A stretch of 64,000 nt of DNA, from assembly GCF_042242105.1 (NCBI RefSeq), contig NC_092030.1:4193501-4257500 (forward strand), read 5' to 3'. Shown here in pieces: positions 58,601 to 61,600 of the stretch; position 1 is the stretch's first letter; each line of letters opens with the position of its first letter. The translations under genes and the position numbers were made by a program. The DNA comes from Pempheris klunzingeri. Lineage: Eukaryota; Chordata; Actinopteri; Acropomatiformes; Pempheridae. Below the pieces are notes generated by a model, which was not told the DNA's origin, made no database searches, and worked only from the letters and a program-made list of their open reading frames with translations.

Positions 58601-61600
58601 CTGTGATTCAGTCTCTGAGTCACTGTTTGAGTGTTACTCACCATCATACCTACGATGATGTAATACATACTGGTTAATGTAATATGGTAATATTTGCAAA
58701 CTTGTTCTATTTTTAAGAATCATTTACAGTTAAATTTATTTTGAATTTCATTTTCATTTTGGCATTTTTTTGTATATAGTTCTATGAGCCTTTTGTTATT
58801 TCTAATGTGATTGTTCTCATTGAGACACTTTTGCAGTGCCACAAAATCTTTGGGGTTGGACACCGATACTGTGTGCTGTCCACACAACAGTTCACGTTCA
58901 TCTCTTTTAGCCATGACCACAGTCTTTCCATTAAACCAAGCCAAGTGGTTTTAGTTGGGATTGTTTGGCCAAACGGTGTCATCCAGCCAACAGGTGTGCT
59001 AGATCAATTATTTTGGAAGGCAATGACAAATTACCCACCTTGTTGTATGAGGATTTGTTCTTTTTAACAGTTCTGGCCTGTTGGAAATCAACCCTGTGAG
59101 CAGTTTGCTTCCCGCATTCAGCTACAGCAGCTAAAGTGTTGAACTCAGGTCAGAACCTCACATCTCCAGGGATAGGCCGGACCGTTGCTCTTTTGATGAC
59201 TAAAGCTTGTGACACATGAAGACAGTGTTTGACTTGGCACTAACAACTGTGCAACCCCTAATGTCCCTCATTAAAGTACATTTATACCCTCTGCAACTAT
59301 TAACTGTGACCTCACCATAGACCTTTTACAGGGCTTTGAAAAAACATATTGAAGGATCTAAAGTCTAAAGACGTTTCCTGGAAAAATAAAAACTCTGTCC
59401 ATTCAAATCTGCCTGGAACAGCGCTTAGACATTTGAGAAAAAAAGCACACAACGAGAAATCTATTGATCTAACTTTACTGATTCCCAAAGACAAGTCTGT
59501 TTCCTTTTTACCCCCCATCAGAGCATAAGGTCAGCAACAGGACAGAATAGATAATGTTTTACTCCAAAATACCTCAGAAGGGCTCCTTTTTTAAAATGCA
59601 ACAATTGTTCTTCTTCATTTTCTCCATTTTTCTCCTCTGCACCTTTCTCTTCTCTCTAGGTTCCTCAGCAGCACCGACTGTCTGTGGATGTGATCCCAGA
59701 GTTGAAGAATTCAGACAACTACTGTAGGAACCCAGGAGGAATCAGCGACAAGCCCTGGTGTTACACCTCAAATCCCAACATACGCTGGGAGTACTGCGCG
59801 GTGCCGCAGTGTGGGGAGATCAGCATAGTACCAGGTACCTCCACTGCTGCCTTCTGTCCCTTGTTCATTTGGTAAATTGAAGCAATATTGTTAACATCAT
59901 CATCTGTTTGTGCGTGCAAATTATTCATTTTAAAGCATAAATTAATTTCAAGGGCCCAAATGAATCAAAATTAAGTTTACAGCTGTCAGTTGTTTCATGC
60001 TGAGCTCTATATTAATATAATACCAAATACATACATGCTTAGTTTTAGTGGGACTTTCCAATACTGATGAACCTGTGTCTGTGTCTGTCTGTGTCTGTGT
60101 CTGTGTCTGTGTCTGTGTCTGTGTCTGTGTCTGTGTCTGTGTCTGTGTTTGTGTTTGTGTTTGTGTTTGTGTCTGTGTCTGTGTCTGTGTCTGTGTCTGT
60201 GTCTGTGTCTGTGTCTGTGTTTGTGTTTGTGTTTGTGTTTGTGTCTGTGTCTGTGTCTGTGTCTGTGTCTGTGTCTGTGTCTGTGTCTGTGTCTGTGTTT
60301 GTGTTTGTGTTTGTGTTTGTGTTTGTGTCTGTGTCTGTGTCTGTGTCTGTGTCTGTGTCTGTGTCTGTGTCTGTGTCTGTGTCTGTGTTTGTGTTTGTGT
60401 TTGTGTTTGTGTCTGTGTCTGTGTCTGTGTCTGTGTCTGTGTCTGTGTCTGTGTTTGTCAGTGAAATCAGAGTCACCGGGCCCTCGTCAGACTAGTCACC
60501 CCCCTCCCTCGACCACAATATCATCTCCAGCCTACTCCATGTCCGTCATCGTCATCATCCTGACTGCACTTGCAGCCACAGTATTCCTCACCATCATCAT
60601 CCTCGCCTGCCGCAGACAGAGGAAGCAGTGGAGGAACCGGAAGAGGTGAGCTAAAGACAAGAGGCACAGTTACTTATATATCTGTGTGCGCACCTTTCTG
60701 TTCCACACTCCCCCTTTCTTTCTGCAGAGCGATGGAGACCCCGACATTGACCACTCTTCCATCAGAGCTCCTGCTGGATCGGCTCCACCCCAACCCCATG
60801 TACCAGCGGGTTCCCTTACTGCTGAACTCCAAGCTGCTCGCCCTCGAGTATCCCCGGAATAATATCCAATATGTTAGAGATATTGGAGAGGGAGCCTTTG
60901 GACGGGTTTTCCAAGCCAGGTGAGAGGGGTAGAGGATGCAGTGGGGGATTTACTTAATGATATATTTATCCTATTTGGCAATAAAAGGAGAGAGGAAAGA
61001 ATATATTTAGGCAATGTCTTTAAGAGAGAGAAGGGGAGGTTGAATAGCCTTCCAACCCAAACGGGAGAGAGACTGTACAAAAAGAGATATTTGTTTGCCA
61101 TATCGCATTACTCGGGCTGATATTGCCGTGTCATCATCATAATCGCTGACGTGGATATTTCTCAGGCAGAGGAAGAGACAGGGGTCAGACAGGATTTAGA
61201 GGGGGGGGGTAGAGCAGCTAAACAAGGCCACTGGTCATTCTGAGAACTGCTGCGTCATTCACAAAGTCACAAGGAGAGCTGCTACAGGTGTCATTTTCAT
61301 TCCACACTGACCTTGAATGTCTCAAATTAAATCTTGTGATCAGACTATTTACCAGATGTGGACCATACGTTGCTCATAAATCTATTCAAAATCTGAACAC
61401 TTTGTCAAGAGCAGTTTTGTCGACACCCAAATCTATATTTTGGGCTGTGAGAAGTTCGTTGTTTCCTTTTTCAGACAAGACAGTGGCTGTGTAACCCCAC
61501 TGTCCTCACTGAGACACTTTTTCATAGCAGAAAAGTAAAATCTAACTAGTTTTAGTTGTTTCCTAATGAAATTGTGTGTGGTGACAAAGTCTGTCATAGG

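What the first reader, a model, noticed from the sequence alone, without database searches (positions are those of the whole stretch)
60067..60645. musk transmembrane-exon acceptor is the end of a ~385-bp hexanucleotide array
The array ends in the acceptor itself (tgtttgtcag). It contains no adenosine, so a normal branch point must lie before it. The nearest good match is CTGAT with its A at 60067, 394 nt from the AG, and no AG occurs between. That is a very distant branch point held open by a repeat-made AG exclusion zone. Repeat length changes would alter branch-to-acceptor distance for an exon that decides membrane anchoring of MuSK.
Basis: partly seen in the sequence, partly recalled or inferred. 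Interest (0 to 1): 0.75.

Follow-up and report, generated by a model that had tools for sequence, protein, structure and literature searches.

The report
Repeat-stretched splice site in fish musk
In a reef fish, a 387-base run of a repeated six-letter DNA word sits inside the splice signal before the membrane-spanning exon of the muscle receptor gene musk, apparently pushing the two halves of that signal about 390 bases apart; this is a rare but already known kind of arrangement, and an unusually clean natural test of how far the splicing machinery can reach.

Summary
The intron 59835-60461 ends in a (TGTGTC/TGTGTT)n array (60073-60458, 64.7 copies). No A occurs from 60072 to 60459 and no AG between 60047 and 60461. 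The only strong branch motif inside the AG-free zone is TACTGAT (A60067), 394 nt from the acceptor.

The gene is musk: a 16-exon join reproduces residues 1-731 of an annotated Pempheris klunzingeri MuSK exactly, through this acceptor. At the other 14 acceptors examined the nearest A at 18 nt or more is 18-31 nt upstream; here it is 390.

My reading: 387 of the 394 nt are repeat. With 2-5 hexamers the site would be ordinary (19-37 nt), so a tract in a normal acceptor expanded and displaced its branch point without creating an AG. Branch points this far away are known or predicted (PTB, nPTB), so this is a new variant of a known kind.

Use of A60067 is predicted, not shown; a non-adenosine branch inside the array is the main rival. 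Skipping the exon shifts the frame and stops after seven residues, so it is no clean anchored/soluble switch. Length polymorphism is untested, and no fish genome could be searched.

The parts
59660..59834 (+). musk coding exon 13, second kringle exon (upstream neighbour)
   Evidence: Pfam Kringle; exact match to P0001 in the joined model
59835..60461 (+). Intron 13, GT-AG, phase 1, 627 nt
60062..60068 (+). Predicted branch site TACTGAT, branch A at 60067, 394 nt from the acceptor
   Evidence: best site in the AG exclusion zone; 6 of 6 U2 pairs with a recalled U2 motif; use not shown
60073..60459 (+). TGTGTC/TGTGTT hexanucleotide array (TRF: 60073-60458), without A and without AG
   Evidence: TRF; composition 0 A, 48 C, 128 G, 211 T
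60460..60461 (+). Acceptor AG
   Evidence: used by annotated protein P0001
60462..60645 (+). musk coding exon 14, transmembrane exon, 184 nt
   Evidence: alignment to human MuSK transmembrane region in 8s9p; exact match to P0001; skipping gives ERWRPRH then stop
60728..60919 (+). musk coding exon 15, juxtamembrane exon and start of kinase (downstream neighbour)

Best explanation
This is an ordinary musk acceptor whose short UG/UC-rich tract expanded to about 64 hexamers. The old branch site TACTGAT (A60067) stayed on the far side and was pushed from about 19-37 nt to 394 nt from the AG. Because the repeat unit holds no A and no AG, growth created neither a competing adenosine branch point nor an earlier AG. 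U2 is expected to branch at A60067, and the second step to pass a 387-nt UG-rich spacer, predicted to be unstructured, to the first AG, giving a constitutively included transmembrane exon. Shown here: the array, the A-free and AG-free zones, the acceptor used by the annotated protein, the motif and the arithmetic. Inferred: branching at A60067, the expansion history, second-step passage and constitutive inclusion.
For: No A for 388 nt and no AG inside the zone. The nearest A at 18 nt or more is 18-31 nt away at 14 of 15 acceptors and 390 nt at this one. TACTGAT is the best site in the zone (6.33; next 3.33) and in the top 0.5% of window As. It reaches 6 of 6 U2 pairs, score 11, against at most 4 of 6 pairs and score 6 for any position 15-45 nt from the AG. 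394 = 7 + 387: with 2-5 units the distance would be 19-37 nt, the range given for about 90% of human branch points (PMC7969005 passage). A second musk acceptor (Ig3a, 49660) also abuts a TG-type array with a 4-nt gap, which fits acceptor tracts seeding arrays. PTB exon 11 depends on UACUGAC at -351 (PMC1431707). The joined model equals P0001 over 731 residues.
Against: No lariat, RNA read or orthologous intron was seen. The motif is only moderately rare: 3.6% of random 30-nt stretches hold a site as good, with weights I set from a recalled consensus. The array is no classical polypyrimidine tract: T 54%, C 12%, G 33%, longest pyrimidine run 3, 70% pyrimidine in the last 20 nt against 50-95% at the 12 other acceptors scored. 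An upstream site, A59894, ties on U2 pairing, although eight AGs lie between it and the array. Predicted folds keep A60067 paired (unpaired probability 0.01-0.03), and the array alone folds at 0.0 kcal/mol, so no stable structure is predicted to shorten the path. Up to 5 of 6 U2 pairs occur at some non-A position in the array. PMC1431707 gives a human AGEZ of 369 made by an AG-less repetitive element with the branch point at -17.
Confidence: 0.6

Rival explanations
1. The branch point is a non-adenosine nucleotide inside the array at normal distance (about 18-40 nt). The array is then just a long odd tract, and the 394-nt spacing is not real.
For: About 8% of human branch points are not adenosines (PMC6988378 passage). 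A repeat-made AG exclusion zone with a conventional branch point at -17 is on record (PMC1431707 section 6). Some array positions reach 4-5 of 6 U2 pairs.
Against: Within 15-45 nt of the AG the best pairing score is 6, at most 4 of 6 pairs, against 11 and 6 of 6 for A60067. A strong adenosine site is present just where the AG-free zone begins.
Confidence: 0.2
2. The spacer is a regulatory platform: UG-rich binding proteins (CELF-like) coat the array and set exon 14 inclusion, and array length tunes MuSK output.
For: The array holds 63 UGUGU and 18 UGUUUG (the CELF assignment is recalled). Regulatory elements often lie in the region below distant branch points (PMC1431707 abstract passage). A UG-rich repeat at an acceptor alters CFTR exon 9 splicing through TDP-43 (PMC12171016 passages).
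Against: GUGUGU and GUGUG, the recalled TDP-43 and RBM24 cores, are absent from the array (0 of each). Skipping exon 14 gives a stop after seven residues, an unlikely regulated product. No evidence of alternative use was seen.
Confidence: 0.1
3. The intron belongs to the teleost class in which AC and GT repeats at opposite ends pair and replace U2AF2 (Lin et al. 2016).
For: GT-type repeat at the 3' end of a teleost intron; the class is described in PMC7404189 and PMC9198270 passages.
Against: The intron's 5' part holds no AC repeat; its best helix with the array scores 25.5, against a median of 24, a 90th percentile of 32.5 and a maximum of 141 in 40 control stretches, and 64 for a 40-nt AC repeat.
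Confidence: 0.03
4. The array length is an assembly artefact.
For: Short tandem arrays are prone to collapse or inflation (general knowledge).
Against: The species' assembly is from 12,450-bp mean HiFi reads at 104x (PMC12488967). The array has a patterned internal structure, ten runs, 0 of 20,000 shuffles as few. The window-to-assembly link is inferred from protein identity.
Confidence: 0.04

Closest known systems
Distant-branch-point exons defined by AG exclusion zones (Gooding et al. 2006, PMC1431707), above all PTB exon 11 and nPTB
   Same: Long AG-free zone (413 here; 381 and 438 there), near-consensus branch site toward its 5' end (TACTGAT here, UACUGAC at -351 in PTB), no adenosine branch site near the AG here
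   Different: The spacer is a tandem hexanucleotide array rather than a pyrimidine tract; PTB exon 11 is regulated whereas this exon looks constitutive; branch use is not mapped here.
OGDH exon 4b (PMC7969005), with fish including ocean sunfish Mola mola
   Same: Distant branch point in a fish intron; canonical fish AGEZ given as about 280 nt
   Different: There the arrangement is conserved and enforces mutually exclusive exons with the branch point close to the 5' splice site (46 nt in M. mola); here the 5' splice site to A60067 distance is 232 nt and no paired exon was seen.
Human exon IDB1079466.8106 (PMC1431707)
   Same: AGEZ of 369 made by an AG-less repetitive element
   Different: It has a good branch site at -17; here the array has no A at all.
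CFTR (TG)m(T)n acceptor of exon 9 (PMC12171016)
   Same: UG-rich repeat abutting an acceptor
   Different: The CFTR repeat is short (TG11 and TG13 named in the passages) and binds TDP-43; this array is 387 nt, contains no GUGUGU, and has its putative branch site on the far side.
AC/GT-paired teleost introns (Lin et al. 2016; known here only through PMC7404189 and PMC9198270)
   Same: GT-type repeat at the 3' end of a teleost intron
   Different: No complementary AC repeat in this intron

Membership tests
Distant-branch-point (AGEZ) exons | AG exclusion zone of at least 100 nt | tested here: met
   413 nt
[quoted passage not shown]
   TACTGAT, best in the zone, 6 of 6 U2 pairs; consensus and U2 motif recalled
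Distant-branch-point (AGEZ) exons | No adenosine branch site at conventional distance | tested here: met
   nearest A 390 nt from the acceptor
Distant-branch-point (AGEZ) exons | Polypyrimidine tract adjacent to the branch site | tested here: inconclusive
   67% pyrimidine but interrupted by G, longest pyrimidine run 3
Distant-branch-point (AGEZ) exons | Branch use shown by lariat mapping or mutation | not testable with these tools
   no RNA or bench data
Distant-branch-point (AGEZ) exons | Large AGEZ kept in orthologues | not testable with these tools
   no fish genome reachable; the own-genome request did not complete eight times
AC/GT-paired U2AF2-independent teleost introns | AC repeat near the 5' splice site pairing with a GT repeat at the 3' end | tested here: not met
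CFTR-type UG-repeat acceptor | UG repeat able to bind TDP-43 (GUGUGU core, recalled) | tested here: not met
   0 GUGUGU in 387 nt
CFTR-type UG-repeat acceptor | Repeat length changes exon inclusion | not testable with these tools
   needs alleles or minigenes
Hexanucleotide tandem array | Head-to-tail copies of a 6-nt unit above threshold | tested here: met
   TRF score 632

The most novel reading that the evidence does not exclude
A constitutive exon of an essential receptor is spliced across a hypervariable, adenosine-free tandem array, so the branch-to-acceptor distance changes by 6-nt and about 80-nt steps between alleles and tunes how much full-length MuSK is made: a length-encoded dial on neuromuscular receptor level.
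Probability: 0.08. Interest if true: 0.8.

Novelty: new variant of a known kind. Interest (0 to 1): 0.5.

Why it matters
The best-studied distant branch points serve regulated exons with conserved pyrimidine-rich spacers. Here a fast-evolving kind of repeat with no A and no AG seems to have stretched an ordinary, apparently constitutive acceptor to a distance like the longest mapped cases (100-400 nt, PMC1431707), and the receptor's transmembrane segment depends on it. If branching at A60067 is confirmed, it offers a natural length series for asking how far the second step can reach, whether repeats lacking AG are tolerated in acceptors because they keep the scan clean, and whether repeat length in a polypyrimidine tract is a quiet source of splicing variation. 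The array is also a large target: 128 of its dinucleotides are one substitution from AG, 65 of them YAG.

Tried and rejected
Exonised array: in the transmembrane frame the array reads as a long Leu-Cys run behind several stop codons, and it is absent from P0001. Rejected.

AC/GT hairpin across the intron: not met. A first attempt with duplexfold gave long alignments full of internal loops and was dropped as uninformative.

RNA folding as a bridge: the array folds at 0.0 kcal/mol, 20 mononucleotide shuffles at -47 on average. The branch-to-AG path is 333 nt in the exon-intron-exon minimum (200 samples: 309-353) and 231 nt in the intron alone (samples 154-325, median 213). A 441-nt piece gave 356 nt in the minimum but a median of 68 (4-250) over 200 samples, at only -17.9 kcal/mol in all. 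The answer depends on context and supports no firm bridge.

An upstream site TGTTAAC (A59894) ties with A60067 on U2 pairing but lies before eight AGs, which should then be used. Set aside.

Gene model: a first join mis-set the Ig3b start, a second failed at the Ig1b end; mended. One search scored 13 acceptors, without the two microexons and with Kr1 at a position later changed (55920 to 55907); one search scores the final 15. My first statement of U2 pairs near the AG ('at most 3 of 6', from the top rows) was wrong; a recount gives at most 4 of 6 there and 5 of 6 in the array. My confidence went from 0.62 to 0.60 for that. A pattern count of transmembrane-exon starts (93 of 103) used a pattern too loose to mean anything and is not used.

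Literature: ten searches. None of the listed titles or abstract starts described an acceptor stretched by a tandem array between branch point and AG (bear on it). One search matched 4,866 papers, listed 12 and was dominated by microsatellite papers, so this is weak evidence of absence. Eight papers were opened: PMC1431707 (passages and section 6), PMC12488967 (passages and section 6), and PMC7969005, PMC7404189, PMC9198270, PMC9508853, PMC12171016, PMC6988378 (passages only). Lin et al. 2016 was not opened and is known only through two reviews.

Full report
What is there. The plus strand of the window carries musk. Sixteen segments from 43541 to 63066 join into a frame whose translation equals residues 1-731 of the 964-residue protein P0001 (Pempheris klunzingeri MuSK isoform X2, NCBI) exactly; apart from the start of the first coding exon every boundary is AG/GT. 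The best PDB match is human MuSK, 8s9p, E 5.8e-215, and Pfam gives Ig domains, Fz, a kringle and the start of the kinase. The window is therefore most likely P. klunzingeri; this is inferred from the protein, not from a record. The transmembrane exon is 60462-60645, coding exon 14 when a 7-nt and a 24-nt microexon are counted.

The observation. Intron 13 (59835-60461, 627 nt) ends in a TGTGTC/TGTGTT array at 60073-60458 (64.7 copies, 96% matches). The run without A is 388 nt against 57 nt for the next longest in 64 kb; the AG-free interval is 413 nt against 163. A60067 in TACTGAT is 394 nt from the acceptor.

How unusual in this gene. Over the 15 acceptors of the model, the AG exclusion zone is 21-113 nt at 14 and 413 nt at this one. 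The nearest A at 18 nt or more is 18-31 nt away at 14 and 390 nt here. Of seven tandem arrays in the musk span, two end within 5 nt of an acceptor: this one and one at Ig3a (49615-49655). Random placement gives P = 0.032 for one or more and 0.0005 for two or more (a test formed after the fact).

Which branch point. Between 60034 and 60072, the zone plus about 15 nt upstream, there are ten As (60035-60071). A60067 scores 6.33, the next 3.33; 0.5% of the As in the window score as high, and 3.6% of random 30-nt stretches hold one that does. I set the weights from a recalled consensus. With a recalled U2 pairing motif A60067 makes 6 of 6 pairs, score 11 (0.9% of window As do as well or better). 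Positions 15-45 nt from the acceptor reach at most 4 of 6 pairs and score 6; the array as a whole at most 5 of 6 and score 9. An upstream A59894 ties with A60067 but eight AGs lie between it and the array. About 92% of human branch points are adenosines (PMC6988378 passage), so a non-A branch inside the array remains the main rival.

A simple history. The distance is 394 = 7 + 387. If only 2, 3, 4 or 5 hexamers were present, the branch site would lie 19, 25, 31 or 37 nt from the AG, the window that holds about 90% of human branch points (PMC7969005 passage). So the likeliest account is expansion of a short UG/UC tract inside an ordinary acceptor. The array carries signs of block growth: its 61 regular units run C9 T4 C8 T4 C9 T5 C10 T4 C7 T1, ten runs, and 0 of 20,000 shuffles had so few; self-identity peaks again at lags of 78-84 nt (0.955-0.957). 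Growth by blocks of about 80 nt as well as by single hexamers is inferred from this.

Why the site may survive. The unit has neither A nor AG, so growth adds no adenosine competitor and no earlier AG. AGs inserted below the distant branch point of tropomyosin exon 3 were used in step 2 (PMC1431707 passage). The spacer is predicted to be unstructured: 0.0 kcal/mol for the array against -47 on average for 20 shuffles. That also means no stable fold brings the AG closer. Against my reading, the same folds keep A60067 itself paired (unpaired probability 0.01-0.03), and the array lacks a classical polypyrimidine tract (longest pyrimidine run 3).

Consequence of failure. Exon 14 is 184 nt. Skipping it reads ERWRPRH and stops in exon 15; retaining the intron stops soon after the donor. 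Either would be expected to give decay or a truncated ectodomain (general knowledge of nonsense-mediated decay). In other fishes the exon is present in many predicted proteins: of 120 stored hits (of 1274 found; two of the 120 are named as other kringle proteins), 103 gave a readable stretch before the transmembrane segment, many with a start resembling VMKPESPGPRQ, judged by eye. Six hits from unnamed sources encode MuSK of 945-973 residues on contigs of 3.1-4.2 kb, which must be spliced sequence. I take the exon as constitutive; alternative use in P. klunzingeri is untested.

Assembly. P. klunzingeri was assembled from PacBio HiFi reads, mean 12,450 bp, 104x, phased; RNA-Seq and Iso-Seq came from gill and muscle, and RNA-Seq was uploaded for NCBI annotation (PMC12488967). 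If the window is that assembly, a 387-bp array is well spanned. I saw neither reads nor the annotation's support.

Prior art. Branch points mapped 100-400 nt from the acceptor are established, with AGEZ of 381 (PTB exon 11, branch point -351) and 438 (nPTB, predicted -389); 838 of 67,334 human introns have AGEZ of 100 or more, and one tyrosine phosphatase exon has 1126 (PMC1431707). Fish OGDH has a distant branch point with a canonical zone of about 280 nt (PMC7969005 passages). The 2006 paper also records a repetitive element without AG giving a zone of 369 with a conventional branch point at -17, a caution for any repeat-made zone; the present case differs because its array lacks A. The AC/GT-pairing class of teleost introns was tested and not met. 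The UG-repeat model of CFTR was partly tested: a UG-rich repeat at the acceptor is there, but the recalled TDP-43 core GUGUGU is absent.

Verdict. Observation confirmed; interpretation partly supported; a new variant of a known kind, with a specific and cheap test in public reads. It works like a distant-branch-point exon; membership stays provisional because branch use and conservation could not be tested and the polypyrimidine criterion is inconclusive.

Noticed in passing
53353-53359: A 7-nt microexon (AGTGGAG, flanked by AG and GTAAGA) is needed to reproduce the annotated MuSK; it supplies the EW that human MuSK also has at this place. Its acceptor has the second-longest AG exclusion zone of the 15, 113 nt.
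   Followed up: partly
55790-55813: A 24-nt microexon just before the kringle, encoding most of DIKKDQIT; leaving out both microexons (with a shifted Fz1 start) still gives an open frame.
   Followed up: partly
49615-49659: A second musk acceptor (Ig3a, 49660) abuts a TG-type tandem array, and its best adenosine branch candidate scores poorly, -0.43.
   Followed up: partly
60073-60459: Higher-order pattern in the array: blocks of 7-10 TGTGTC and 4-5 TGTGTT recurring at about 78-84 nt.
   Followed up: yes
60469-60470: A second in-phase AG nine bases into the exon could give a three-residue-shorter isoform (sequence).
   Followed up: no
51364-51389 with 51556-51669, and 56329-56382 with 56478-56497: Inverted TG/AC repeat pairs inside two musk introns, able to form hairpins away from the splice sites.
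   Followed up: no
proteins P0061, P0068, P0075, P0088, P0089, P0090, P0113: These predicted fish MuSK proteins, six of the seven from UniRef only, have odd or shortened starts of the transmembrane exon; perhaps gene-model errors at a hard acceptor.
   Followed up: no
55907-59834: A kringle domain that the human MuSK in PDB 8s9p lacks: the alignment skips query residues 424-522.
   Followed up: no
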